Origin: Gracilaria domingensis
Taxonomy: Eukaryota; Rhodophyta; Florideophyceae; Gracilariales; Gracilariaceae
DNA length: 64,000 nucleotides
Direction: 5' to 3'
Assembly: GCA_022539475.1 (NCBI GenBank)
Contig: VCMS01000168.1
Span: 1 to 64,000, forward strand
A program made the position numbers and the translations under genes. Below the pieces are notes generated by a model that made no database searches, had not been told where the DNA came from, and was given only the letters and a program-made list of their open reading frames with translations. Positions 29,477 through 64,000 of this stretch are shown here, piece after piece (within the stretch, counting starts at the first letter, position 1; each line of letters begins with the position of its first letter).

Positions 29477-31424
29477 CTAGCTGCTTTCGGCACCTCTGCA
29501 AATGTGCAAAGCTTCGCGAACAAGATGGACATCCCACAACCGAGCATTAACGCGTAGAAATATGATTGCCTCGAACAACAAAGGAGTAAGACTCATTCGC
29601 TGGTTTCGTAATATGTTATCTGCTACTGACCATAGCCGTTCCATTTCTGCGACAGAACCAAGAATAAAACTGCAGTCTCTGTAGCGTGCGTCAGAGATCT
29701 TTTGTTTCTTTCTGCGGTGGAGTCGCTCGGAGTATGACGCAGGTCCATCAACTTGAGACAATGATGTGTGAACAGGCTCCGATGTTAAGAGAAGTCTGTT
29801 GCAAGCTGTCACTTCCACTTCGGTCAGCTGATGCGCACGATTGTTCTCAATCTTACATACGCCACTTTCAAAGAAAGGGTCCGCCAAGATCTCCGCATCA
29901 TCGGCAATGTACTTATCCTGCAAAGAACAGTGAAAAAACGGTGAATCACTGCTTTCAATCCCCCCATTGACATCATCGGTTAGCATGTCCAATGCCTCTC
30001 TACAGTTCGCCAAGCTTAGTTTACGCACCTGCAAATATTTCGTCGTGTGGTCAATTTCTTGCAACTGACGAACATACCGGGCCACTTTGTTTCTAAAAGC
30101 AACAGAATCATTAACATCCAAATTGGAGCGTTCATCCTGGCTCACCTCAATGAGGTTATCGCAAAAACGTAGAAAACGTTCAAGCATATAAAACTTTCCA
30201 GACCACCTTGTCTTATTGTGAACAATTGGCTTTAAGTTAACGATGTTCCGGAGCAACGCGGCATTACAAAGCCTTTGCTTACATTGGGTCATTGTCTCAT
30301 GAACTGAGGTTAGAGTGCTTTCTAAATCAGCGGTAATGTTGACCATGTGATTAACTTCCAGATTCAGCAAGTGGCTTTTGCATGCAACATGAGGTATTCC
30401 AAGTAGCTTTGCAACCTTCTTGTTAACTGCACAGTTATCTGCAGTTTGGCATAACATCCATTCATAAACGTCGACTTCGTAAAACAAAAACATCTCCCTT
30501 AAATGATCAAGGTGTGTTGATGCCGAAAAGTCAACAGCTTCTGGAATATTTATCGCATCATATGCGGATGTGTGTTCTAATGTCGCATCACATTGTGCCA
30601 TAGGAGAGCACGATAACAATGAAAGACATACCTCGCTGTTGGAAGTGTTACAAACCTCAGTGCTTTCTGCTGGCAAAACATAAGATGCAAATAAACCAAT
30701 GTAATGGACACCCCCACAAGTTTAGCCGTCATGAAGTATTGCTCCACCATCTGCTGCTTTGAGTTCCTTTGATATCCTTTTCTCGACGAGTTCGACCGTC
30801 TTAAGAAGCACCTTTTTGAAGAACTTAATTGAGAACAAGTCCTTGTGCTTGGAAAAGTTAGGGAACTTGGAGTCCTCGACGTAGGGAAAGCCGCAGATTT
30901 TTGAATGTAATCATACGCATGTAGTCATAAAGAGCGTGTTCTCGAAAGGTTATTCGTGTGATAATTGGCTTGAAGAAAGAATGATATTGTTGTTGCTGGT
31001 TTGCTCTGGAATTTTCTTCGTACAGTTCGTGAAGTTTCTGCAAGTCTCCGCCCGCGATGCATGATCGGAGGTGATGTAAAGGGTTCATGTACCCTGTGTT
31101 TTTGAGAAAGAAGATCTCTCTCTTTCTTTCTTTACAGTGTTCGTTAGGGCATTGAAAGACGAGATATGTTTTTGACCGAGAGTCTTGAGTTTTGTCAACC
31201 TGTTTTGCTTCCTCTCGGAGCTGTCTGCAGAGCATTGTTACCACTGACTTTGACCTTGGTGTGGCGTTAGGTTTCATGGGTGCAATCCGTATTTGGCAAT
31301 ATGTATCTGAAGCCTGAGTTGAACGATTGAAGAGGAGGATCGCAGTTGAGATCGTTGGATTGAGATCAAACTGGAAGTCAAGTTCAACTGGGCCATCGAG
31401 AAGATTTTGCAATAAGAATTGCAA
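29477..31424 (-). pseudogene. hAT-family transposase, recently inactivated
   Basis: The N-terminal frame (31424-about 30900) has a BED-like zinc finger (C-x4-C ... HHLRSC). A frame change near 30900 leads to the segment with CGFPYVEDSKF and ILHDG, then a TAA where the family normally has a Trp, then HYIGLFASY. The main frame (30676-29477) holds the catalytic RNase-H-like region: ADNCAVNKKVAKLLGIPHVA then CKSHLLNLEVNH, the conserved TRWSGKFYMLERFLRF segment, and the C-terminal dimerisation motif EMERLWSVADNILRNQRMSL then FLRVNARLWD. About 650 residues would be expected, within the usual hAT range. One frame change and one stop are the only lesions seen, so inactivation looks recent. Confidence 0.88.
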
Positions 31425-51593: not shown

Positions 51594-53485
51594 TGATTTA
51601 CCTTGGTAATTAAGAAGAGTGTGTAGAACAGCTGAGAAAAGATCGCAACATCGGAGCAAAAAGTAGGACATGTAAGAAACAGAAAAAAGATGACGTGTTA
51701 CTAGATCATTTTTGCGAAATGAAAAGCTTTTTTGGGATGATTGCAAAATTCTTTGAGCTCTTTTACGTCATACAACTCCCACAACGTCGCTCTAGTACAG
51801 AACGACTTTAATCGAGAGCTTCACAAGTTAAAGAACAAAGCGACAGAAGGCCTAAAAGAGACAAAGGCGCTTATGAATAGCATGAAGAGGTTCTTGATGA
51901 ATCTATCGCAGAAAGTCGCTGATCCAGCCCCAACGCGCGATTATGACTAACAGATCATTGCAACGTTGCTGGGTGGGTTTCGAGCTTCCACTCGGACTGG
52001 CCTTGCCCTACGAGGTTAGCTAGGCGTTAATGCTCGCACGCTGAAATTCGCTGACTTTACTCTTTGAGCAATGGTCCCGCGCTCACGGTGGTGATTCATT
52101 GCGATAAACGGTTTGTATCTGAATCTGCCCAATTGCGCATGTTCTTAAGTTGAATTAACGAACACAGTTCTCTATTATTATCCCTTCTCTCTTCGTATTC
52201 TTAGGTAGGATCGCTTTAAGCCTCTGGGATAGTGCCGGTATCCCGCGAATACCTCACTCTGCGCTCTGTCGCTCAATGGGCATAACACGTTGCATGATTA
52301 GATCAGTTTCCGCAAACTTCGAAGACTCCGGTATATCTTTCTTTTCGTTCGATTTACGGGCTCTGATGACTTTCGCATTCGTCATGTTATTGTTGTTAAC
52401 TAAGGCCGAATCATCGAGTATTGCCATTCCCGGGGGGTGCGTTCATCCGAAAGCTTAGGATACTATAGACAAGAGAGCCCTGCGAGGCAGGTATCGTACC
52501 AGCTTCCCGAGAACTTTATAGCAGCATGAACTATCTTTCCCTTGAAGTTAAAGACAAACAAATTCGTTACCTCTTCTTGTTGCGTATATTCCTTATAGTA
52601 GGCGTTCTGCAAGTTGACTTCTCCATAATTCTGATAACAAAATCTTTCCCCGTCCGTCACTTGAAAAACTCCGTTCAGGAGTGGGCCAAGTTTGCGATTG
52701 TTCTGCAGCAGGGAGGCAGATTCTTTCTTTTCATCGACAGTAGGTCACCGAATAGAAAACCTTATTTCTTTCTTGCTTGTTGCTACTCTGTTCAGAACAA
52801 GAAGACTGTATTCAAGCCACACACTCATATGTAGTATAGTTAAGTCAGCGCTGTGGTATTGTTGACCCGATCGGTATGGCAGGTAAAAAGGGGTGCGTCA
52901 GAGGCTGGCTGGACATGGGAAGTGTCCCACGTGTGAGGAGATTGCACGCCGTGCGGACTTGCACGACAGGAACTACAGGTAGCATAGTTGTAGATAGATG
53001 GCACCGGCCTCACCTCTGGATATTTTCGCCACGTGGGCAGCGTGCCGATTCGGACTGTACGCCGTGAGTTGCAGCGTCGAGGTGCTACTTATGCACCTCC
53101 ACTCCTCCCGTACGCACAACTAGTAAAGGGTAAGCACCATCGTCCTAAACTACTAGTTCGCTAAAACAGACCTTCGATACTATACCGTGCGGGACAATTA
53201 CTAGGTTTACAAGCCATTCGGACTCAATGCGCGTATCTCGACCGCGCCTGACGCTCCCAAACGCTCAGTCTCCCTACGACCGCCCGGTGCTGGCTTTCGT
53301 TTCCACGCGTTACACTTATACCCGACCGGATCACGGGACTACACGCCCAGCTTACGAACTTACTCGGATCGCGCCTCTAGGACTCTTTCGCATGACGGCG
53401 CTATCTCACATTGGTCTCCAGACCTAGAAGTGGGATTCATGTTTTCCGTAGGGAGTACCAACAGATCTGACGAAGATATCTCGTG
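51594..53485. other. Gene-free region, possibly LTR-like near its end
   Basis: Small frames only, such as 52276-52458 with one hydrophobic segment. Around 53080-53101 is a short palindrome (GAGGTGCT...AGCACCTC-like). The stretch just before 53486 could be the leader of the gag-like gene. Confidence 0.35.
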
Positions 53486-54789
53486 ATGAATGCACGTGAC
53501 GCAGATGTGGAACCGACCGTAAGGGTTGATGTCGAAAAAGAACTGCCTCAGTCCGTCGACCCTCCACCGCCGACCGCTTTGGATACTGCTTCGGTTGGCC
53601 GCCGAAGTGCCCGTGGCACTGCACTTGCCCCCAACTTCCGCCTGGAGAACCCCGAGGTACTTTTGCCTAAGTTCTCGAGGCCCTCCTGGGCCGCCGCTGC
53701 TTCTTCCGACCGGAATAATGAAGCTCCAGTGAGTCTGGATGGAGCAGAGTCGCTTCTGCAAGTGTCTGCTTCGACCGGACAGAACACCTCGGAACGTACG
53801 CCGAAGACTCTCCCAGAACTGTGGAAACAGCTTGAGCCTTACTGGCATTACAAGCTGAAGAACGAGATTGAAGCTCTTGTTCCCGTTCGGGTTGAGCTTT
53901 ATCTTCATGAACACCTTCCGGAGTTGTTGACCGAAGTAATCACCTCGACAGTCCGCGAGACTGCCAATGCGATTATACAACAGTTGATACCGATCGGATT
54001 TGGTGAAGGTGAACAGAAAGGCCGACCGGCAGTGTACACCGCAACGGCAACGTTGCCACCCCTTTCCAAGTCTCTACCTGGCCGACCGGACTTAGCCGCT
54101 GGTTACTTACCCGCCGAGCGGAACGGAACAATGAGCCGCACCCAGAACGGGGCCAGCAAATTGTCCCCATGGCTCCTGTCCTCCCGGTGGTTCCTCATCG
54201 AGATGACCCGAACGGAGATTCAGACGACTCTTCTGAAGACGAGAGAAGAGGCCGCCGCAAGAAGGGAGGTAGAGCTGATGATTACTCCGGTTCGGATCAA
54301 CCCCGTGCTAGGAAGAACCGACGTCTTCGTAGACAGAAACGACGCTCTTCTGATTCAGATACTGATTCTGAAAGCTCGGATAGTTCTGATGCCGTTTCCA
54401 GATCTGACAGTGACCAGGACTCAGACCGTTCTGAACGCAAACGCCGCTCCGATCGGCATCGTTCCCGTTCGAAGAAGGCAGCACCCAGGCGCATCAGACC
54501 GCTGAACGAACTGTTCACCAAGGTGGTGGACTACGTCTGTCTCTTGCGGATGCTAGTTTTTGGCGAGGATCGTCCAGAAAGTGGCAAGGGTCGTCCAGTA
54601 AATTTTTTGAAAAAATATCAAGATCAATTATTTCAAAATTTGGAGATAATTGCTTGGGTCGTCCAGAATCGCTGTGCAGTAAATACTGGTGGGTTTTCCA
54701 CTCGTGCTAGTTCTTTAGTCGAGGGCTACCTCAACGGTATTTCGCGAAGTCTAGGTTCAGGTTACATCAAGGTGCACATTACACGATAA
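53486..54789 (+). pseudogene. Retrotransposon gag-like gene with frameshift
   Basis: The first frame, from ATG 53486, encodes a Pro/Ser-rich N-terminus, then a capsid-like helical region (TLPELWKQLEPYWHYKLKNE and LYLHEHLPELLTEVITSTVR) and a linker. Near 54130-54170 the coding signal moves to another frame, which gives a long charged domain of Ser-Asp and Arg-Lys repeats (GDSDDSSEDERRGRRKKGG; SSDSDTDSESSDSSDAVSRS), then LNELFTKVVDY and a short end at 54789. The pattern of structured region plus highly charged tail fits a Gag protein binding RNA. No zinc knuckle or pol was found. A host nuclear SR-like protein cannot be ruled out. Confidence 0.45.
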
Positions 54790-55019
54790 TCTCTGCGGAA
54801 TGATACCCTGCAACGCATGGAATACTGGTGCTAGTACAGATGATGCCCATTCTGAAATCATACCCTTTCATTCCTATCTATTCTTCTATCGACCGCTTTT
54901 GCTAACCACTACTTCGCTATGTTACATGTACCATTTCCCCATGATGGAGCGGGTGTAGGCGCAATCTGCGGCAGCACCTGCACCAAAGTGCGGTATCGGT
55001 AGAACACATACGCACTCCG
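54790..55019. other. Short gene-free stretch
   Basis: No features recognised before the hairpin pair. Confidence 0.4.
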
Positions 55020-55099
55020 AGAGGATGAAGCGCGAAGCGCCTCATCCTCTCTGTTCCTCAAGTAGGGAACCGTGCCCAGATGCATGGTTCCCTACTTGA
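55020..55099. repeat. Two adjacent hairpins
   Basis: Hairpin 1 (55020-55050): 14-bp arms AGAGGATGAAGCGC / GCGCCTCATCCTCT with one mismatch. Hairpin 2 (55058-55099): perfect 14-bp arms TCAAGTAGGGAACC / GGTTCCCTACTTGA. The two are 7 bp apart, the same architecture as at 42827-42937 but with different sequence. Confidence 0.9.
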
Positions 55100-55927
55100 T
55101 GAACCTGCACCAGCAACTCGTGAGCTACGTCGGCATCAAAAATCATTTACCTGTATACGCAAGCAGAAAGTGTCCATAAGTTGGTCAATGCTCCGTTGGA
55201 TACATTTGAAATGCGAAGGAACGTACCATTGATAAAGCAAAACAGAAACGTTGCGCTAGAAAAGTCGAGGGACCGAGTAACTCGCAAAAGTAACCCAAAG
55301 CTTAGTTCCTGCCGTCTACATGTCGCAGAGCGCGAAGAGACGTGGTGAGGATTGGTTAGTTTAGAACAGAGATACGTAGAAGGATATGGAAGAACGTACG
55401 AAGAGACTGCACGGAAAGACTCCACGGAATACATCCGTGAGATACGGATGATGTCCGCTTTCTGGAGGCGTTCATTAGGCGGACATGAAGCGTACCTCAT
55501 TCTCTTCCCCGCCCTCTACTTCGTAGCCAGTGCGAGAGCGGAGAAAGGTACTACGGAGCGGAGTAGAACGCGAGGATGTGGATGGCACGGATCACGACGG
55601 TAACGGTAGGTTGGACGTCGGAGGCGCGGCGGCGGCGGCGGATGGAAGAGATTTATTATTCTGTGCCAGATTGGACAAGTGTACAGCGTACAACGTTGCG
55701 AAACCACAGGTTTATAACCAGTGGTAGATAGTACGAGACGTACACCCTTGTGTTAAGGTCGACGTGTACCTACGTTCCTTTTTGAACGAAAGCACGTGAT
55801 TTAAACTCAAAATATATTCTCCGCTCTCAGCTTGACGTCAAACCTGACTGTCGCACGACCTCTTTCTCCCCTCGCACGACCTTCTTTCGCCGTCTTTGTC
55901 GTCGTTTCTCCTTCATTTCTTCTTCCC
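55100..55927. other. Left flank of the KDZ-transposase block
   Basis: No gene supported. If the block is one transposon, its left terminal repeat should lie here, perhaps near 55740-55830, but none could be paired because the right end is outside the window. Confidence 0.4.
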
Positions 55928-58359
55928 ATGGTCTACTACTGTACACATAAGAAGCGTGGGTGCCCGTTCGTTACTCGCCGAGGAGTGTTATCTCTTCAAC
56001 AGCATGTCAATTATTTCCCGTTTCGTCTGCAAGCCGCGCTGGAAGACGACTATAGGCGGCCCATTCGAAGAAGCAAGCGTCTCAAGCTTTCTGCGGCCGC
56101 GCCCGCATCTTCCAAAACAGTCACTGCCCCTTGTCGCCTTCCTGAGCCTCAGGTGTCCGAAGACATCGTTGACCCCACTCCGTGCGCCCCTCCCATTCCG
56201 GACACTTCGCATTGTGTTTCTTCTTCCCCGGGTCCCGCGGCATTAGAGCGAGAACACGGAAGCAGTTCCCGCCCAGTGCCTTCTGAGGAGGCCCTCGGTG
56301 ATTTGCATATGGATTATCTCACGGTTTGTCTGGCTTCAGTAGCTTCCAACCTTGGTCATCGTGAGGCAGACGAGCTAATTGGGCTACTTTGGGACCCGCG
56401 ATTCTCGCGAAAGCGATTCAAAGAGACCATAACAAGTTCCAAGCGCTGCACAGAACTGAAGAACGCCATTTTCGAACGATACGCCTCAAAAGACGGTTTC
56501 AATCGAAGAACTGTCTCGCCCGAAGGATGCAAGTTCAGCGCCACCCTCTACACGAGAGACCCCGTTCACACACTTGTTAAACAGCTCCAGTTGGCTAACA
56601 ACGAAAACATATTCTTCCACCCTATACCTCAGACCCACTTCACGAAAATATCTCACCCTATGTCCGGCTCTCTCGCAAGAGACGCCACCTCAAAACTTAA
56701 GGAAATGGTCATGGGCTCTTTGGATAGTAGAATAGTGTGGTACTCCCAAGAAATACGTTACAGTGAATCTTTCGTAGGTCTTATGCAGGTATACACCGAT
56801 AAGTCTTCAACCACTCTAAAGCAAACAACGGTTACCGCCTATCCTCTTCACCTCATATTTCTCAACTTCTCCGACGATCTACGCCGTAAGTGCATCCGTG
56901 ATGACCTCACAGTAGTGGCATACTTCCCTACCACACTGATCGAGGTTTCCGCATCTGAAGCAGACGCAATGCCATTCGTTTCTAGCAAGTCTCTACGCGA
57001 GTCCAGGATGCAAATCCTTCAAGAATCTCTTCGTCAAGTCCTGGAGCCCATTCTAAATCTCACGCAGAAAGGTTTTCAGTTCATCGGCGAAGACAAACTA
57101 AGTCGAGTGTGCCATCCTCTGCTTGCAAGTTATTGTGCGGATATTCCTGAGGCTAAGGACATTCTGTCCATTCTTCATGGGACCAAAACAGAAAGCCCGT
57201 GTCATAGATGCAAAGCCCCTCGCTCATCTTTATGCAGTCCTGTTCCCACCTCATTCAACGAACGTTCTCAAAAGCACACGAAAAGCATCCGAAAGACATA
57301 CACAGCTATCTTGCAACATGCACAAAAGACGAGGGGGAAAGACGTCCACGTCGTGCGAGGGAGAGGAGATCTCAGGCGGATATTCTGATGCGTTCAAATT
57401 CCATATCTCTCATTCCTTCGTTCCTCGAAACTCCCGTAAGCCTTGGAATGAACCCGGAATTGTCTCCATACAGTCGGTTCTCATTCGAACCGTTACACAA
57501 CTTGCATCTCGGCATCTCGAAGCTGATAAAAACGGCCACAATCGAGAGAACGCAGTCAGACACCCTGTGCACCACAATAGGAACATCTGCATCGCGTTCA
57601 TTTCGAACGATACGCACCCAACTCCTCAACCATGCAAACGCAATTCTAGCTGCCATAGAACGCGAATCTCCTGCCAAAGGTTTACATATCGATTTCTCCA
57701 CGCAGGAAAAAGGCAAATCTTTGAATGGTATCTTCACGAAAGACGGTCTCCGTGGAATGCTGGAGGCCAAAAACTACAAAGCACTTGACATGGTCTTCCC
57801 CTTCATAAGAGCATTCTTTGACATATGCTGTGGAGAACAGGACGTTGCCCCAATCACAACCGTCTTCTCTCAGTACTCGGACTTGCTTTCGACCTTATTC
57901 AGATACAATCGTGACCCGTATTGGACTGAAAGCTCTCTCCTGTGTCTTAGCCTGGAGATTGAAGCCTTCAAGCGTTCCGCAACAGAGACTCTGGCGGATT
58001 TTCATCCCTCTAGACTGGGAACTCTGAAGTTTCATCTTCTCGATCATCTCATGGACGAAATTCGCCGTCTGGGAAGTATCAAGTACTACGACGCAGCCAT
58101 ATACGAACATGCACACCTGCGTTTTAAGAGACACTACAAAAAGACGTCCAGAAGAACAGCAACGGCTGTGGAGGTGACTATTCGCTTCATTGAGCACGGA
58201 CATGTTAGAAAGCAATGGAATGGCAATACTCCTTACCAGAGTAATCCAGGTTTACCAGGAACTTCCCCTTCCTCGCATTCACCAACGAAACAATCCCTAA
58301 TAGACCCCAATCTTCGGCTCACACTGTCAATAAAAAATTGTTCTTTCACAGTGAGGTAA
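55928..58359 (+). CDS. KDZ-superfamily (Plavaka/Zisupton-like) transposase
   Basis: The first frame (55928-57388) starts MVYYCTHKKRGCPF, a zinc-finger-like Cys/His cluster, then a basic linker. The core has LYTRDPVHTL, MQVYTDKSSTTL with a conserved Asp at 291, TAYPLHLIFLNFSDDLRRK, VVAYFPT, SYCADIPEAKD (Asp 405) and PCHRCKAP (C425, C428), matching the order of the Plavaka-type KDZ catalytic region with its zinc-binding insert. The protein continues in another frame (to 58359) with FSFEPLHNLHLGISKLI, LLDHLMDEIRRLGSIKYYDA and YEHAHLRFKRHYKKTS. The frames meet at about 57340-57376, through either a frameshift or removal of a 32-nt GT...AG segment (57344-57375). Together about 800 residues, normal for KDZ. 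The rest is open, so the copy is young or under selection. Confidence 0.72.
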
Positions 58360-58541
58360 AGTTTTCCGTTCGACGGCGTTCGATATCCAAATGTAGCCTC
58401 TCTCACGTCATTACCAAGAACCTTAGTCCAATCTTCCGTTGTCGTTCTATAATTACGAAACTCGCTGGAATTGGTCCTCAAGACATGTTGCCTGACATCC
58501 CCCAGAACATTCTTTAAACACAGAGGTAGTTGGGCAAACTT

Positions 58542-59036
58542 CTATGTAAACAGTTTCTGTCGCTGGCCACCCCTTGACACATCCGTACTTAGAAGGCTCA
58601 CAACCGTCAACACCCAAGCGTCCAAACGTGCGAGCAATAGTATTGTGCCATCTAAAAAGGTGCCCGTATCCTTGTCTTCCACATCACACCCAATAAACTC
58701 CTTTAGTACTTGTACCCCGACACGGTTTCCGAAGAACAAGTCTTGATCTTCCGTCGGCACATCCTCGACATTATCCGCATTGGAGTACTTTAGACGAACA
58801 AATGGGGCTTTTCTCCACCATGAAGTGTTCGGTACACCGTTTTCGTCGAGACGCAGTATGTTCTCCTGCGCTTCCTTCAACTGCATTGTGAGTTCGTCAG
58901 CATTCTCTTCTACCAGCTTTGTTTTTCTCCAAATCAGATCGTAACCCAGGAGCAGAAATAGTTTATCCGTCTTATTTCTCTTCAGAACGCCCACGACGTC
59001 ACTCATGGTTTGCGGCATTCTCTGCCTGAGGCACAT
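58542..59036 (-). CDS. Unknown ORF, in frame behind the coiled-coil gene
   Basis: 164 residues with a helical coiled-coil-like segment (KTKLVEENADELTMQLKEAQ), a SWWRKAPFVRLKY stretch and a folded-looking end (FFGNRVGVQVLKEFIGCDVE). It lies in the same frame as the 59049-60551 gene and follows its TAA after only 12 nt. Removing a predicted 51-nt GT-AG intron (59089-59039) would join the two into one protein of about 650 residues without a stop. No known domain. Its stop is 183 bp from the transposase stop, convergent. Confidence 0.45.
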   Translation of the reverse strand: MCLRQRMPQTMSDVVGVLKRNKTDKLFLLLGYDLIWRKTKLVEENADELTMQLKEAQENILRLDENGVPNTSWWRKAPFVRLKYSNADNVEDVPTEDQDLFFGNRVGVQVLKEFIGCDVEDKDTGTFLDGTILLLARLDAWVLTVVSLLSTDVSRGGQRQKLFT

Positions 59037-59048
59037 ATCTGCACAAAG

Positions 59049-60551
59049 TTACGGTTTACACTTGTCGGTAAGAGATGCTTTTCTAATACCTTCCCAGCTC
59101 AACTCCTTCAACTCGCTTTCAACCATTTTCTTCAGCAAAGCATCTGGCCCCCCCTCTACCGATGGTGTGAACATGCCAAAACTGCCTAAGAGCTCCACGG
59201 GGTTTTTAGGAACCATGTATGAACCACTTTCCTCCGGCTCAATAAGCCCTTTCCCACTCTCAGCTGCGTCTTCCACCTTCTCGGCACGGTTACCCCAATT
59301 TCGGGTGAGCGACTCACCTTCGAGCCATATCTCACTTCTTTCTCTCCTTGCCCACGTCAGCATGTTGTGATACACTGCTTGAGCAACCACTCGAAACTCG
59401 TCGCACACCTCAATTTTATGCTTCTTTCGACCTGTCTGCCCAGGTTCACCAGCACGTGTACTCCTATCTCCCTCCTGTTTCAGTGCCCCTCTTAGCCCTT
59501 CAATGACTAGATCCTTCTCTTCAAGCCTCTTTTTCAAAGCCGTACTCTGCTCTTGGGCGACCTTCACTAGAATTCCCCGAACCATCAAGTCCTCTTGTAG
59601 CGTCTTAACCTTTTCTTTCAAGCAATTCAGTTCATTTAAAAGATCAGGTCTGTTCATAGAGCTTGAATTCACACCAGTTTGGATATCTTCCGTTATTTCC
59701 CTAGCTTCTTCGGCGACAGGCCCCGGTAATGCCGCAGGATTCGGTGTTATTTCGTTATCGGAACTATCCTCATGTGCCATAGCCTTAGCCACGAGAGGCT
59801 GCAGGCGTTCTGTGTCCACCCTTGGCACGGCTCCGAGCTCCAACTCCCGTGTATGTCCTCCTCCATGGCATGGTATATCAGATGAATTGGGCCTCGTACG
59901 AGCTGCAACGGCCCCCGTTCTGGAAAGAGGGGAAGGTCGAAAAGTAACTCGTCTATCAGTTGTCTCTCGATTTCTTATTGTGTTTCTCCCTTGTCCGGAC
60001 CCATTGCGAGGCATGATACGATTCATAGCGGCCCCAGTTCTAGAAGAGAGGGATGGACGTGACGATCTTAATATACTAGGACTCTCACGACTTCTCGTCA
60101 TTGTCCCTTGTTGTCCAGATCCACTGGGCGGCGTAACCCGCGCCCCAGTAGCTCCGGTCTTCGATATCGGCCGGGGACATGAAGGTTTTGGTGTCATACG
60201 AACCTCTTCGGTTCCAGTTGTCATGCCCTCCTGTCCTGATCCGCTGGGCCGAGTTACCTCATCTTCTTGAGGAGCAGAGACAGATGCACGATTTGCATTA
60301 TCGGCAGTTGACGGCACGACATCGTTCGCTGATCCACGAATTCTTGACGCAATCCCGGAAGACGCTCCGCTGCGAGATGGGCGAGAGAGTCCTGTAGAAG
60401 GACGCCCACTGACTCTCTCCTTCGTCGAGGACGACTTCCGTTTAGGAAGTGCGGTGCTTGTAGCCTGATTCGTATCATCCGATGCTCTTCTCTTCTTCTG
60501 TCCACTCTTGTTCCGCTGCGTACTATTTCGCTTTCTCGGCGTTATACCCAT
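59049..60551 (-). CDS. Basic, repeat-containing coiled-coil protein of the KDZ block
   Basis: 500 residues. The N-terminal half is basic and disordered (MGITPRKRNSTQRNK, KKRRAS) and includes three imperfect repeats of about 40 residues built on SGSGQ-x-G/R ... SRTGA (about 100-220). A coiled coil follows at about 300-365 (LLNELNCLKEKVKTLQEDLM; LKKRLEEKDLVIEGLRGALK), then a folded C-terminus with AVYHNMLTWARRERSEIW and LGSFGMFTPSVEGGPDALLK. Nuclear location and DNA or protein binding are plausible from composition. No known domain was recognised. A poly-C tract precedes the ATG by about 40-70 nt, and CTCCACAG directly before the ATG could be a 3' splice site. It may continue into 59036-58542 (see that entry). 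Confidence 0.6.
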   Translation of the reverse strand: MGITPRKRNSTQRNKSGQKKRRASDDTNQATSTALPKRKSSSTKERVSGRPSTGLSRPSRSGASSGIASRIRGSANDVVPSTADNANRASVSAPQEDEVTRPSGSGQEGMTTGTEEVRMTPKPSCPRPISKTGATGARVTPPSGSGQQGTMTRSRESPSILRSSRPSLSSRTGAAMNRIMPRNGSGQGRNTIRNRETTDRRVTFRPSPLSRTGAVAARTRPNSSDIPCHGGGHTRELELGAVPRVDTERLQPLVAKAMAHEDSSDNEITPNPAALPGPVAEEAREITEDIQTGVNSSSMNRPDLLNELNCLKEKVKTLQEDLMVRGILVKVAQEQSTALKKRLEEKDLVIEGLRGALKQEGDRSTRAGEPGQTGRKKHKIEVCDEFRVVAQAVYHNMLTWARRERSEIWLEGESLTRNWGNRAEKVEDAAESGKGLIEPEESGSYMVPKNPVELLGSFGMFTPSVEGGPDALLKKMVESELKELSWEGIRKASLTDKCKP

Positions 60552-60588
60552 GCTGTGGAGATAAACAGGGTAATGAAACGAAATTGTT

Positions 60589-60619
60589 GGGGAGGGGGGG
60601 AGGGGGTGGGGGGGGGGGG
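60589..60619 (-). repeat. Poly-C leader tract before the coiled-coil gene
   Basis: On the minus strand, C runs of 12, 5 and 7 separated by single A or T, ending about 40 nt before the ATG at 60551. Confidence 0.85.
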
Positions 60620-60802
60620 TGCATGGTTCAGATATTCCGGGAGACTCCGCAGTTCCTGCTTTTTAGGAATTTGAGGTGCCCAATGGGTCGCAAATATCGC
60701 CGTTACAGATGAAGAGCTCCAGTGTACATGTACAACAACGCGTATTGCAGGCAGCTGCAACACTCACAAGCATATTTACTTTCTATTCGCTACTGAACTC
60801 AT

Positions 60803-61528
60803 CTATTGCTCCAATGTCAGAGCCCAGTCCCAGGCGTACTGCTCTCCGTAGTCGAAATACAACTCTTCGCCCTTCTCAATATCTCTTACTGCTCTACAAC
60901 GAAGTAGAGCATAGTTAGAAAGGTCTGACTTGAACTGTATCACGGACTTCGCTTCCACCACCTGCACATTGGCAGTTCGAGTCCTGTTTGACCGGGGCTC
61001 CGATAAATCGGGATCCCCGGCATGATATCCGGCGTCGTTAATTTGGCCCCCGATACAAAACGGCGCCGGGAAAATGTAGACTTCGCTCTCCTTTTTATCC
61101 TGAGTCTGTCCTGGTCTGTTCCTCAGGTGCAGAAACTCCGAACGAGTCACAGTGACCATCATAGAAAACAACTTGTACCGCACAGGAGTTGCTCCGAGAA
61201 ATCCACTTCCATACGTTAAGTGTCTCTCCTTCCGGTTCGTCAGATCCATGTATACCAAAGTTCCATAAAAATGACAAATAGTTTCCCCAGCCAATATCTT
61301 ATGTTCCGTGAACACCCCCATACAAGCACGCGAATGTCGAATCTTAGAAGATGCTACATGTAAGCGATAGCGATTGGCTTCAACAGTCAACAACATATGC
61401 ATATCCATTAGATTCAGAGCTCCTCGGTACTTCTCGTCCCAAAGATCTACAGTATGCTGTCCACACTTGTCGACAAACTCCCAGTCCTTCCAGTTTCTTC
61501 CTAGGAACTGAGTAATATGTGCAGGCAT
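60803..61528 (-). CDS. SET-domain protein (putative lysine methyltransferase)
   Basis: 241 residues. The SET fold is indicated by ACMGVFTEHKILAGETICHF (68-87) for the first strand pair, the Asn-containing IND...SNRTRTANVQVVEAK segment in place of the usual N-H-S-C motif, LLRCRAVRDIEKGEELYFDY (about 208-227) and an EQYAW tail. SET proteins transfer methyl groups from SAM to lysines, often on histones. There is no pre-SET or post-SET Cys cluster. The frame is continuous with the upstream methyltransferase gene: only TAA-GTG separates the two. It could therefore be the C-terminal domain of one fusion, either split by a nonsense mutation or joined by splicing. Confidence 0.72.
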   Translation of the reverse strand: MPAHITQFLGRNWKDWEFVDKCGQHTVDLWDEKYRGALNLMDMHMLLTVEANRYRLHVASSKIRHSRACMGVFTEHKILAGETICHFYGTLVYMDLTNRKERHLTYGSGFLGATPVRYKLFSMMVTVTRSEFLHLRNRPGQTQDKKESEVYIFPAPFCIGGQINDAGYHAGDPDLSEPRSNRTRTANVQVVEAKSVIQFKSDLSNYALLRCRAVRDIEKGEELYFDYGEQYAWDWALTLEQ

Positions 61529-61531
61529 CAC

Positions 61532-63940
61532 TTAGTACTGAGGGTATCCAAATGGAGCCTCCCATTCTAGCCGACCTCGGTCCCGATGTGGAACCCGTTC
61601 ATAAGTCGTTGAAGCAGCATCCACCACCTCCTGTTCAACCACGATGTCATCCTTCCCCGCGCGACGAACTTCGGCCATAAGAGTCGTTATATTATGCTTT
61701 GCATGGCTGAAGCATGGCCTATTCTTCTCGCCCCCTAAGAACTTCCTATGCGTTGTCAGCGATAGGCACGCCATACCCGTAGAAAAAGTTCCCGCAAACA
61801 TGTCCATGACAAGATCACCCGGTCTTTTGAACCGACATATCAACTCTTTCATCAACTCCCTGGACTTCTGCTCCGGTCTTATGTGCTGCACACTTGGTAC
61901 TGAACTACCTGGCTCATTTACCTTCCATGTCAACCACTCCCCCGCTCTCGGTTTCGGCACCCGGTCAATTACATTCCTGTTAGCCGGGAAAGTAGAAGGA
62001 ATGAAATTGTTCTCCTCAAATGGAGTAAGACTGGGGTCCTCCGATGGTCGCAATCCATGCTTCACCCCATGAACGGCGTACTCCGTTACGGGCTGTATCC
62101 CAAACTTCCGTGGATTCCCTCCAACATTACTTCGATCCCGGATGAACACCAGTGGATTCCCATCCACTTTAAACGAAGGCATGAGTTCTGGCTTACCTTC
62201 GCTTCCAGCTTCATCTTTCGTACTCGCCGTTTCCGAAAGTATCCTGTGCCTAACATGAAACTGTGCCATGGCACAGAATATAATGAAATGCTCACCTGAC
62301 CGAAGCGCGGAACTTATTAAGTCAGCCGTACTGATCATGTCATCCTCACTGAAGACATCGTGAGCACTATTCCGTTTGTTCCTCTTCCTTCGAGTGTTAA
62401 AGGGAGGGTCTGTTTGGACAAGCTGTGCCTCACCCCATAAAATCTCACTCTGATTCAGAAATATTTCATGTGTGTGCCTCAGGTCCTTCATGTCACAGTT
62501 GTACGCTACAAAGTGCGACTTTCTCATCCCCTTCCACACCTTGTCCATATTCATTCGAAGAAGACTGGATATCCCCTTCATGGGCGCCTCAATACCAGTC
62601 TTTTGGATGTTGTAACCGGCAACCCAAGATTCATGCTCCGCAAGATTCACCGGCTTCTCGAAGTCGTCGCTATCGGAGCTCACGAGGTTCATATACTCTC
62701 GACGAGGTGGGGATGGGGCAGACTTTGTCGAAGAAGGTTCGGCATTACCGGAAGTTTTAGGAGTTTTCGTCAGTTCAATATCGGGTTTCGCGTGATTGCC
62801 GACATGGAACCCTGCCGCATGACGCATATTCTGTATCGGTTTCCATAGCAACTCCGAAAACTTCTGAAATCGAGCGGGGAACTCACCGGAGTCAGAACCA
62901 GATACGGTATCCATCCGTATCTCCGAAAACTCTATCCAGTTCCTCATCTGATCAGCCCGTAAGCTATAGAGGCTATCGTGGGTGCATATGGTTTCGAGGT
63001 CTGTCAAAAATTCCTTAGCCAGTATTCGGAGGTTTGTATCGCATTCATCACTCAAGGTCTCCACCGATCCAGTAGTACTGCTCTGTGGCACACCCTGTGT
63101 GTTGAATCGAGTACTCTGGCTCGGCGGGGCATAACCAGACTCCCGTGTCTCTAGCGCTGTATACTTCAACTTCTGCATATTCATGTAAATGTATGGTTTC
63201 ACCATGTGCTGAACGTTCGTGTATCCAAGATGAGCCGCAAAACAACTCCATGCCCATACGACCTCACTGATAGCGAATCCCAGTCGATCACAGTTGTCTT
63301 TGGAGAACGACGTAAAAGTGGGTATGTACACAGATGGTGCATAGTTCACTTTTCGTTTCTTTTTCGGTTGTTTCTTCTTCATCATTCTGATGTTGTCCTT
63401 CTCTCCCATTATGTGGCCGAGGTATGATAAGTATATAACGACCTCAAATGGGTTCACAGCTGTTGGTTGGATGAACACTGTCGTCTTCAGAACCTGTTTT
63501 CTCCTGGTCATGAAATAACCAACCAGGCATCGCACCGGTAGGTATATACCCATATCCATAGAGAGAAGGAAAAAATCGCGCAGTCTCTGGTCCTCATCCC
63601 CGTCCTTCTTGTCAAGAAGCTTCGTTACAAGATATCGTTGCTCAACAGGTTTGTTATTCACAACACTGTTTTGCAGCTGTTGCAGTGTCAAGTTCTGCAG
63701 GTTCTTGGAGTTAGTGGCCTCCTCAAACATCTTCCTTGCCTCCGGAATATCCTTATAGTTCTCCGCGGAGAACTCTATTAGCCCTCTAAACCCCACGTCC
63801 CGTGGCCGATCAGGGCCTCCATCGCTGTTTGCCAAAGCATCGCGAAGAACCAAGAAAAGTCTGACATATGCATGGAACGCCGGAGGCGGAGCACTCATGT
63901 CGATAGGATGTATCTCCTCTCCATCATCGGTGGAATCCAT
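61532..63940 (-). CDS. DPPF-type DNA amino-methyltransferase with nuclear localisation signal
   Basis: 802 residues from ATG 63940. The N-terminal 480 residues are of unknown fold and contain a classic nuclear localisation signal, QPKKKRKVNY (PKKKRKV at 192-198). The C-terminal third has the catalytic motif QTDPPF (DPPF at 511-514). Well downstream come RPEQKSRELMKELICRFKRP and the SAM-binding DMFAGTFSTGMACL (713-726) with LGGEKNRPCFSHAKHNI. The order DPPF before the SAM motif is that of the beta-class N6-adenine/N4-cytosine methyltransferases of bacteria and phages, not the DPPW MT-A70 family. Methylation of DNA amino groups in the nucleus is therefore likely. A Ser/Asp-rich linker (about 440-460) separates the halves. 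TAA at 61534-61532 is followed in the same frame by the SET protein. Confidence 0.75.
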   Translation of the reverse strand: MDSTDDGEEIHPIDMSAPPPAFHAYVRLFLVLRDALANSDGGPDRPRDVGFRGLIEFSAENYKDIPEARKMFEEATNSKNLQNLTLQQLQNSVVNNKPVEQRYLVTKLLDKKDGDEDQRLRDFFLLSMDMGIYLPVRCLVGYFMTRRKQVLKTTVFIQPTAVNPFEVVIYLSYLGHIMGEKDNIRMMKKKQPKKKRKVNYAPSVYIPTFTSFSKDNCDRLGFAISEVVWAWSCFAAHLGYTNVQHMVKPYIYMNMQKLKYTALETRESGYAPPSQSTRFNTQGVPQSSTTGSVETLSDECDTNLRILAKEFLTDLETICTHDSLYSLRADQMRNWIEFSEIRMDTVSGSDSGEFPARFQKFSELLWKPIQNMRHAAGFHVGNHAKPDIELTKTPKTSGNAEPSSTKSAPSPPRREYMNLVSSDSDDFEKPVNLAEHESWVAGYNIQKTGIEAPMKGISSLLRMNMDKVWKGMRKSHFVAYNCDMKDLRHTHEIFLNQSEILWGEAQLVQTDPPFNTRRKRNKRNSAHDVFSEDDMISTADLISSALRSGEHFIIFCAMAQFHVRHRILSETASTKDEAGSEGKPELMPSFKVDGNPLVFIRDRSNVGGNPRKFGIQPVTEYAVHGVKHGLRPSEDPSLTPFEENNFIPSTFPANRNVIDRVPKPRAGEWLTWKVNEPGSSVPSVQHIRPEQKSRELMKELICRFKRPGDLVMDMFAGTFSTGMACLSLTTHRKFLGGEKNRPCFSHAKHNITTLMAEVRRAGKDDIVVEQEVVDAASTTYERVPHRDRGRLEWEAPFGYPQY

Positions 63941-64000
63941 CGCTTCAGCGCACACAACGGAGGCGAGCCTTTAAATGGCGACTTACGCTGGGAACCCCCG
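63941..64000. other. Upstream flank of the methyltransferase gene, window end
   Basis: 60 bp, containing TTTAAA near 63972. No terminal repeat could be tested because the window ends here. Confidence 0.4.

What the first reader, a model, noticed from the sequence alone, without database searches (positions are those of the whole stretch)
55928..63940. A KDZ-type transposase next to a DNA amino-methyltransferase and a SET-domain protein: a possible epigenetically armed transposon
Seen: long open frames of a Plavaka/Zisupton-like transposase converge on a compact minus-strand series (coiled-coil protein, SET protein, DPPF methyltransferase with PKKKRKV) with small gaps, in a region otherwise full of decayed elements. 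Known: KDZ transposons in fungi are linked with TET/JBP DNA-modifying genes, and bacterial-type amino-methyltransferases are rare in eukaryotes. Inference: this is one mobile element that writes its own DNA and histone marks, perhaps for silencing escape, self-recognition or dosage control. The 5mC-oxidising partner of fungal elements would be replaced here by 6mA/4mC writing plus SET.
Basis: partly seen in the sequence, partly recalled or inferred. Interest (0 to 1): 0.92.

Follow-up and report, generated by a model that had tools for sequence, protein, structure and literature searches.

The report
Seaweed transposon carrying a fused methyltransferase
A many-copy jumping gene in a red seaweed genome carries, besides its own mobility enzyme, a single protein that joins a bacterial-type DNA methylase to a histone-type methylase, so a genomic parasite may write two kinds of chemical marks on chromosomes at once.

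Summary
The window lies in a 78 Mb genome of a red seaweed (Gracilaria domingensis or a near relative, inferred), not a fungus. The transposase, coiled-coil, SET and DPPF-methyltransferase genes are all high-copy and recur in one order, orientation and spacing: one mobile element. Its left end is at window 54534; it runs past the window's right edge, and its right end was not found. (1) The transposase is Plavaka, which Kojima 2025 places with CACTA/EnSpm, not KDZ. (2) Methyltransferase and SET are one 1055-codon frame; the stop between them is private to the window copy (sense codon in all 29 other copies held), and a relative from an unnamed source, 44% identical, shows the same fusion. (3) Just outside the window a divergent gene encodes a ParB-like plus putative 2OG-dioxygenase protein, so an oxidase may be present rather than replaced. 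Variants shared between copies of the fusion show fewer amino-acid changes than expected, so the protein was probably selected while the element spread. Most likely it marks the element's own DNA and chromatin to escape silencing; no activity has been shown. New variant of a known kind, high interest.

The parts
54534..54670 (+). left terminus of the element (begins CGTCTGTCTCTTGC) with three TCGTCCAG motifs close to the end
   Evidence: of 23 listed other copies on this side, 22 begin at window 54527-54534, 14 of them exactly at 54534, and one (C324) starts further in; an unrelated flanking repeat ends at 54534 in 15 of 16 places and at 54540 in one; the same terminus lies at a second site, inside another copy's promoter region in L023; motif positions (6 in the window against 2.0 expected)
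55928..58356 (+). Plavaka transposase; broken into two frames in the window copy (55805-57385 and 57208-58356), open for at least 1010 codons in 4 of the 7 other copies held
   Evidence: PF18759 E 2e-19; open copy PF18759 E 2e-18; frame lengths
58545..60662 (-). coiled-coil protein of unknown function, split by in-frame stops here (537 + 168 aa, continuing to about 58233); 834-835 aa in one frame in 5 of 7 other copies held
   Evidence: ORFs; copies; full frames; no Pfam or NCBIfam match
60806..61531 (-). SET domain, C-terminal part of the MTase-SET fusion
   Evidence: PF00856 E 2e-8; sense codon at the junction in 29 of 29 other copies held
61535..63940 (-). DNA amino-methyltransferase (motif IV DPPF before motif I FAGTFSTG: beta-class order, recalled), N-terminal part of the fusion
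   Evidence: PF01555 E 3e-12; phrog_67 E 2e-23 for the fusion of another copy; nearest solved chains DpnA and CcrM
61532..61534 (-). stop codon of the window copy between MTase and SET
   Evidence: sense codon in 29 of 29 other copies held
63956..64000 (-). part of a 97-bp leader that recurs as an inverted repeat before the divergent ParB/dioxygenase-like gene (contig C168 63956-64052 and 64764-64859)
   Evidence: 93.8% identity over 97 bp, opposite orientation

Best explanation
This is one copy of a large, high-copy DNA transposon with a Plavaka transposase in a red seaweed. Shown by sequence: transposase, coiled-coil protein, a 1055-codon DNA-amino-methyltransferase-SET fusion and a divergent ParB-like plus dioxygenase-like gene, which shares a leader with the fusion gene, lie in fixed order in many copies, with HAD-type genes beyond; the fusion bears signs of selection. 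Inferred: the fusion enters the nucleus, binds element DNA (perhaps helped by its long N-terminal part or the coiled-coil partner), methylates adenine in it and methylates a histone or other protein lysine on the nucleosomes there. The divergent dioxygenase-like protein may oxidise host-made methyl marks. Together they would keep the element's chromatin open to its own transcription and transposase. None of these inferred steps is shown. I put about 0.95 on the element and fusion, about 0.4 on anti-silencing as the purpose.
For: Copies (lower bounds, window included): MTase 58 match rows, 56 places after joining pieces, with 56 of 1036 candidates scored; SET 150 rows, 150 of 563 scored; transposase 82, 82 of 1720; coiled coil 81, 81 of 826; divergent gene region 28 long matches, 28 of 707. 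Fixed layout: MTase followed by SET in 37 of 56, 28 of them at exactly 2439 bases; SET then coiled coil in 62 of 150; SET facing transposase in 21 of 150; coiled coil facing transposase in 15 of 81; divergent gene upstream of MTase in 12 of 56; wrong-orientation controls 0 of 150, 0 of 81, 0 of 150. Fusion: junction codon is sense in 29 of 29 other copies held; P0008, the only hit to the MTase domain among 1276 candidates, aligns across MTase and SET at 44% over 379 columns. Selection: in 24 in-register copies, variants shared by 3 or more copies are 29 synonymous, 34 nonsynonymous, 0 stops against 14.9, 46.7, 1.4 expected from the same mutation types (omega-like 0.37), against 0.59 for variants in two copies and 0.72 for singletons; one-sided p 0.0001 and 0.0002 for shared and singleton classes, copies taken as independent. 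Motifs: DPPF in 23 of 24 copies, NDAGYH in 23 of 24, GEELYF in 23 of 24. Divergent gene: 7 relatives of its second frame, HTDF in 7 of 7; its first frame matches the N-terminal parts of P0002 (E 1e-17) and P0005 (E 2e-17), which carry both parts in one chain.
Against: No biochemical or methylome data. The SET motif reads N-D-A where canonical enzymes have N-H-S (recalled), and the late NYG/DYG site varies (N-Y-G in 19 of 24, D-Y-G in 4, a stop in 1), so SET activity is uncertain; selection on SET alone is not shown (shared variants only 5 synonymous, 9 nonsynonymous). Motif I departs from the commonest form in 6 of 24 copies. The dioxygenase reading rests on motifs only: no Pfam match for 7 of 7 members, no PDB match for the profile and only a chance-level one for the single frame, both AlphaFold models poor (mean pLDDT 35 and 39); the final arginine is present in 4 of 7 relatives. 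The right terminus was not found, so element limits are one-sided. The left terminus does not match the termini published for PlavakaA or PlavakaB. The window copy is broken in the transposase, coiled-coil and fusion genes. Selection shows that the protein mattered, not for what.
Confidence: 0.55

Rival explanations
1. Self-restraint: the fusion writes repressive DNA and histone marks on element copies, limiting transposition and host damage, like a transposon-coded copy-number control.
For: Many element copies persist; in bdelloid rotifers a captured amino-methyltransferase and SET-domain enzymes are linked to silencing of transposons (passages read of PMC8885841).
Against: A self-silencing protein is harder to keep by selection between competing copies (general reasoning); the divergent gene beside it looks more like an eraser than a writer, if it is a dioxygenase at all.
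Confidence: 0.2
2. Transposition control: methylation of element ends, as with Dam and IS10/Tn10 (recalled), couples excision to replication or protects ends from the transposase; SET acts on the transposase or a chromatin partner.
For: Transposase and fusion travel together; three TCGTCCAG motifs sit within 100 bases at the left end as candidate binding sites.
Against: No methylation target is known; three motifs are few.
Confidence: 0.15
3. The genes are passenger cargo caught by the transposon without use to it.
For: HAD-type, metabolic-looking genes are also aboard, and 20 of 30 copies held carry a stop in the fusion frame, some of them through frameshifts.
Against: Shared variants are depleted of amino-acid changes; the fusion is conserved at 44% identity in another source.
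Confidence: 0.1

Closest known systems
TET+ transposons of fungi, including Plavaka and KDZ (Kojima 2025, PMC12730594; abstract, sections 21 and 26 and passages read)
   Same: Plavaka-type transposase in a DNA transposon that carries a DNA-modifying gene; silencing escape proposed there too
   Different: Those carry a TET/JBP dioxygenase; no DNA amino-methyltransferase-SET fusion appears in the parts read; hosts are fungi; published Plavaka termini differ from the left end here
Plavaka giant repeats of Amoebidium (PMC11244446, section 7 and passages read)
   Different: tyrosine recombinases are the genes named there; no MTase-SET fusion is mentioned in that section
HarbingerS and MuDR elements with SET genes in Phytophthora (named in a passage of PMC12730594)
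   Same: a SET histone methyltransferase gene carried by a DNA transposon
   Different: other transposase superfamilies; no DNA methyltransferase fusion stated in that passage
Bdelloid rotifer N4CMT with SETDB1 variants (PMC8885841, passages read)
   Same: bacterial-type amino-methyltransferase working with SET-domain enzymes on transposons
   Different: host-encoded and on separate proteins; N4CMT has SPPY and a chromodomain; here DPPF is fused to SET inside the transposon
CcrM / DpnA bacterial N6-adenine methyltransferases
   Same: PF01555-type methyltransferase; nearest solved chains by sequence
   Different: long N-terminal extension, C-terminal SET, eukaryotic transposon context

Membership tests
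Plavaka (CMCT) DNA transposon | Plavaka transposase domain | tested here: met
   PF18759 E 2e-19 in the window, 2e-18 in an open copy
Plavaka (CMCT) DNA transposon | termini 5'-TGT..ACA (PlavakaA) or 5'-CATCA..TGATG (PlavakaB) | tested here: not met
   left end begins CGTCTGTCTCTTGC; right end not reached. So: an element with a Plavaka-type transposase, not filed as PlavakaA or B
Plavaka (CMCT) DNA transposon | 2-3 bp target-site duplication | not testable with these tools
   right end lies beyond the letters that could be fetched
KDZ transposon | Kyakuja/Dileera/Zisupton transposase | tested here: not met
   only Plavaka passed the curated cut-off; Kojima 2025 separates Plavaka from KDZ
N6/N4 DNA amino-methyltransferase, beta class | PF01555 with motif IV DPPY/F before motif I | tested here: met
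   the class order is recalled; the DPPY/F versus SPPY contrast is in PMC8885841 (passage)
N6/N4 DNA amino-methyltransferase, beta class | methylates adenine (or cytosine N4) in DNA | not testable with these tools
   no methylome or assay
SET lysine methyltransferase | PF00856 over cut-off | tested here: met
   35.0 bits against 22.4
SET lysine methyltransferase | canonical NHS-type catalytic motif (recalled) | tested here: not met
   NDAGYH in 23 of 24 copies; GEELYF kept in 23 of 24. So: a SET-domain protein; an active enzyme of this family is not claimed
TET/JBP dioxygenase (divergent gene) | TET/JBP or other 2OG domain by profile or fold | tested here: inconclusive
   HTDF in 7 of 7 and GRGDxxH in 6 of 7 relatives, but no Pfam or PDB profile match and poor models
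ParB/Srx superfamily (divergent gene, N-terminal part) | ParB-like domain | tested here: inconclusive
   phrog_3264 ParB-like E 4e-4; relative P0002 phrog_1033 E 0.018, P0005 no ParB match; GmrSD_N E 0.05, under its cut-off

The most novel reading that the evidence does not exclude
A eukaryotic transposon encodes its own full marking kit: one polypeptide that writes both 6mA (or 4mC) on DNA and methyl-lysine on histones, transcribed from a shared two-way leader with a ParB-like DNA-binding dioxygenase that erases or hypermodifies bases. It would be, as far as I know, the first physically fused DNA-and-histone writer, and adenine methylation in this alga would be a transposon's self-mark rather than a host mark.
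Probability: 0.35. Interest if true: 0.92.

Novelty: new variant of a known kind. Interest (0 to 1): 0.77.

Why it matters
DNA and histone marks are usually set by separate host enzymes that recruit each other. Here a parasite carries both catalytic-type domains in one chain, with signs of selection, in many copies. That makes a long-standing question testable: can a genomic parasite impose its own epigenetic state, and is adenine methylation in eukaryotes sometimes a mobile-element trait? The element gives a natural set of intact and broken copies for comparison.

Tried and rejected
Rejected: KDZ assignment; fungal host; SET and MTase as separate genes; chance neighbourhood. The right boundary first seemed to be contig position 70190, because 26 of 40 scored places end there (24 at query 1690, 2 at 1694) and 13 others begin there. 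I dropped it because two of those 13 contigs, C203 and C296, carry the element and about 1.45 kb more at that point before the match resumes (first 601 bases of it seen in C203). So the window copy is probably shorter there and the element probably goes on past 72500; this rests on two contigs.

Led nowhere: protein search with the whole fusion, none of 6992 candidates at E 0.001; IMG/VR scan, no relative; phage records gave 4 weak methylase matches; PDB searches of the divergent protein and of a HAD-type gene; two AlphaFold models too poor for a fold search, so none was run. Ten paper searches, of which I saw listings, showed no title or abstract start on an MTase-SET fusion in a transposon; none asked for the fusion by name, and most subscription journals are not held. 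Two Iyer-group papers I wanted were not held. From memory only: a Bostrychia genome paper may discuss large Plavaka elements in red algae; I did not find it. In one search the first SET-region ratios (0.79-0.85) included copies out of register; the later counts drop 6 of 30 copies for that reason. No correction for phylogeny was made, and the identical copies L034/L035 were both kept. Only the 30 best-scoring MTase copies were held as letters, so the fusion counts lean to good copies.

Full report
What was checked. The window is positions 1-64000 of contig C168 of a 77.9 Mb genome. The best protein match to a gene of the element is annotated in Gracilaria domingensis (91% over 91%), with another, 32% identical, in Chondrus crispus; G. 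domingensis is a red alga. Ordinary nuclear-type genes (DnaJ, ubiquitin hydrolase, triosephosphate isomerase, ApaG) lie at 45-51 kb of the window. The species is inferred, not given.

One element. Searches of the same genome returned, window included, MTase 58 rows (56 of 1036 candidates scored), SET 150 (150 of 563), transposase 82 (82 of 1720) and coiled coil 81 (81 of 826), all lower bounds. Placing the listed hits against each other, SET follows MTase in 37 of 56 (28 at exactly 2439 bases), the coiled coil follows SET in 62 of 150, the transposase faces SET in 21 of 150 and the coiled coil in 15 of 81, and the divergent gene lies upstream of MTase in 12 of 56, at narrowly clustered distances. 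Three wrong-orientation controls gave 0 of 150, 0 of 81 and 0 of 150. The misses are at least partly list truncation, but SET or MTase copies without the transposase are not excluded.

Ends. On the left, of 23 other listed copies 22 begin at window 54527-54534 and one (C324) starts further in; an unrelated repeat ends at 54534 in 15 of 16 places and at 54540 in one. In L023 the same end sits inside another copy's promoter region. The sequence begins CGTCTGTCTCTTGC. On the right the element passes the window edge: 28 places match the next 4.5 kb, window included, and 26 others match on to contig 70190, without a break in C282. It probably runs past 72500: C203 and C296 carry about 1.45 kb more at 70190 and then match again to the end of the query. 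No inverted copy of the left end was found in the held letters. The window copy is therefore at least 15.6 kb and probably about 18 kb or more, with one end unknown.

A fused double methyltransferase. In the window, MTase (812 codons) and SET (242) are split by one stop. In 29 of 29 other copies held that codon is sense; 10 of 30 copies have no stop in 1055 codons, one of them out of register near its end. An open copy scores N6_N4_Mtase at E 4e-15 and SET at 2e-7 in one chain. P0008, a 378-aa fragment from an unnamed source and the only hit to the MTase domain, aligns through MTase into SET at 44% identity, so the fusion is not peculiar to this genome. The catalytic motif is DPPF with motif I downstream, the order of beta-class enzymes (recalled); PMC8885841 contrasts DPPY/F of adenine enzymes with SPPY of N4-cytosine enzymes (passage). 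Adenine is thus the likelier target. The SET part keeps GVFT in 22 of 24 and GEELYF in 23 of 24 copies but has NDA where NHS is usual (usual motif recalled).

Selection. For 24 in-register copies I counted variants against one real copy and compared with expectation from the same trinucleotide changes. Singletons: 194 synonymous, 372 nonsynonymous, 22 stops against 154.5, 411.4, 22.1. In two copies: 30, 53, 1 against 20.4, 61.2, 2.3. Shared by three or more: 29, 34, 0 against 14.9, 46.7, 1.4. One-sided p is 0.0001 for the shared class and 0.0002 for singletons, taking sites as independent. By region the shared class is small: 11/13, 13/12 and 5/9 (synonymous/nonsynonymous) for the N-terminal part, catalytic part and SET, so selection on SET alone is not shown. 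C-to-T is the commonest change (201, plus 62 at CpG) but T-to-C reaches 140, so there is no strong RIP-like pattern.

The neighbour outside the window. Upstream of the fusion gene and divergent from it lie frames of 722 and 584 codons, separated by one stop in this copy. P0002 and P0005 match the first frame in their N-terminal parts (E 1e-17 and 2e-17) and the second in their C-terminal parts, in one chain; so the two frames are probably one gene. The first part matches ParB-like families weakly. The second has an HTDF...SH...GRGDxxH...RYH pattern typical of 2OG dioxygenases (recalled), with HTDF in 7 of 7, GRGDxxH in 6 of 7 and the arginine in 4 of 7 relatives, but no profile or fold support. 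The fusion gene and this gene start beside a 97-bp inverted repeat, 93.8% identical, so they may share regulation. Further on are HAD-IIB-like genes.

How it may work. Shown: multi-copy, fixed gene set, common left end at different sites, signs of selection on the fusion. Inferred: nuclear import (PKKKRKV, in 22 of 24 copies), action on the element's own DNA, adenine methylation, lysine methylation, and benefit by escape from silencing. Rivals are self-restraint, control of transposition, and passive cargo; the last fits the selection result poorly.

Against what is known. Transposons with SET genes, with TET/JBP genes, and large Plavaka repeats are in print, and a host enzyme pair linking amino-methylation with SET proteins is known in rotifers. 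I saw no report of a DNA methyltransferase-SET fusion in the searches named under Tried and rejected; absence from this library is weak evidence. Hence: a new variant of a known kind.

Noticed in passing
L023 (C419:20291-25726), about 1.0 kb upstream of its MTase: A second copy's left end is inserted in the G-rich promoter region of this copy: nested insertion of the element into itself.
   Followed up: yes
L064 553-1380 + and L065 -: HAD-IIB-like sequences on both strands near the right part of the element, the minus one probably joined in frame to a reductase-like stretch (my reading, no profile match for that stretch); metabolic-looking cargo of unknown use.
   Followed up: partly
window 52830-54534: A separate repeat present in 16 other scored places, into which the element seems to be inserted; holds a 344-aa frame without Pfam match.
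   Followed up: partly
window 29480-30721 -: Weak hAT dimerisation match (E 0.002, under its cut-off), perhaps a decayed hAT transposase.
   Followed up: no
L034 and L035 (contigs C458 and C664): Identical over the fusion frame: recent duplication or a duplicated contig in the assembly.
   Followed up: no
window 54997-55288 and the same side of other copies: Copies carry partly duplicated blocks (about 375 bp apart in L050) between the left end and the transposase, varying between copies.
   Followed up: no
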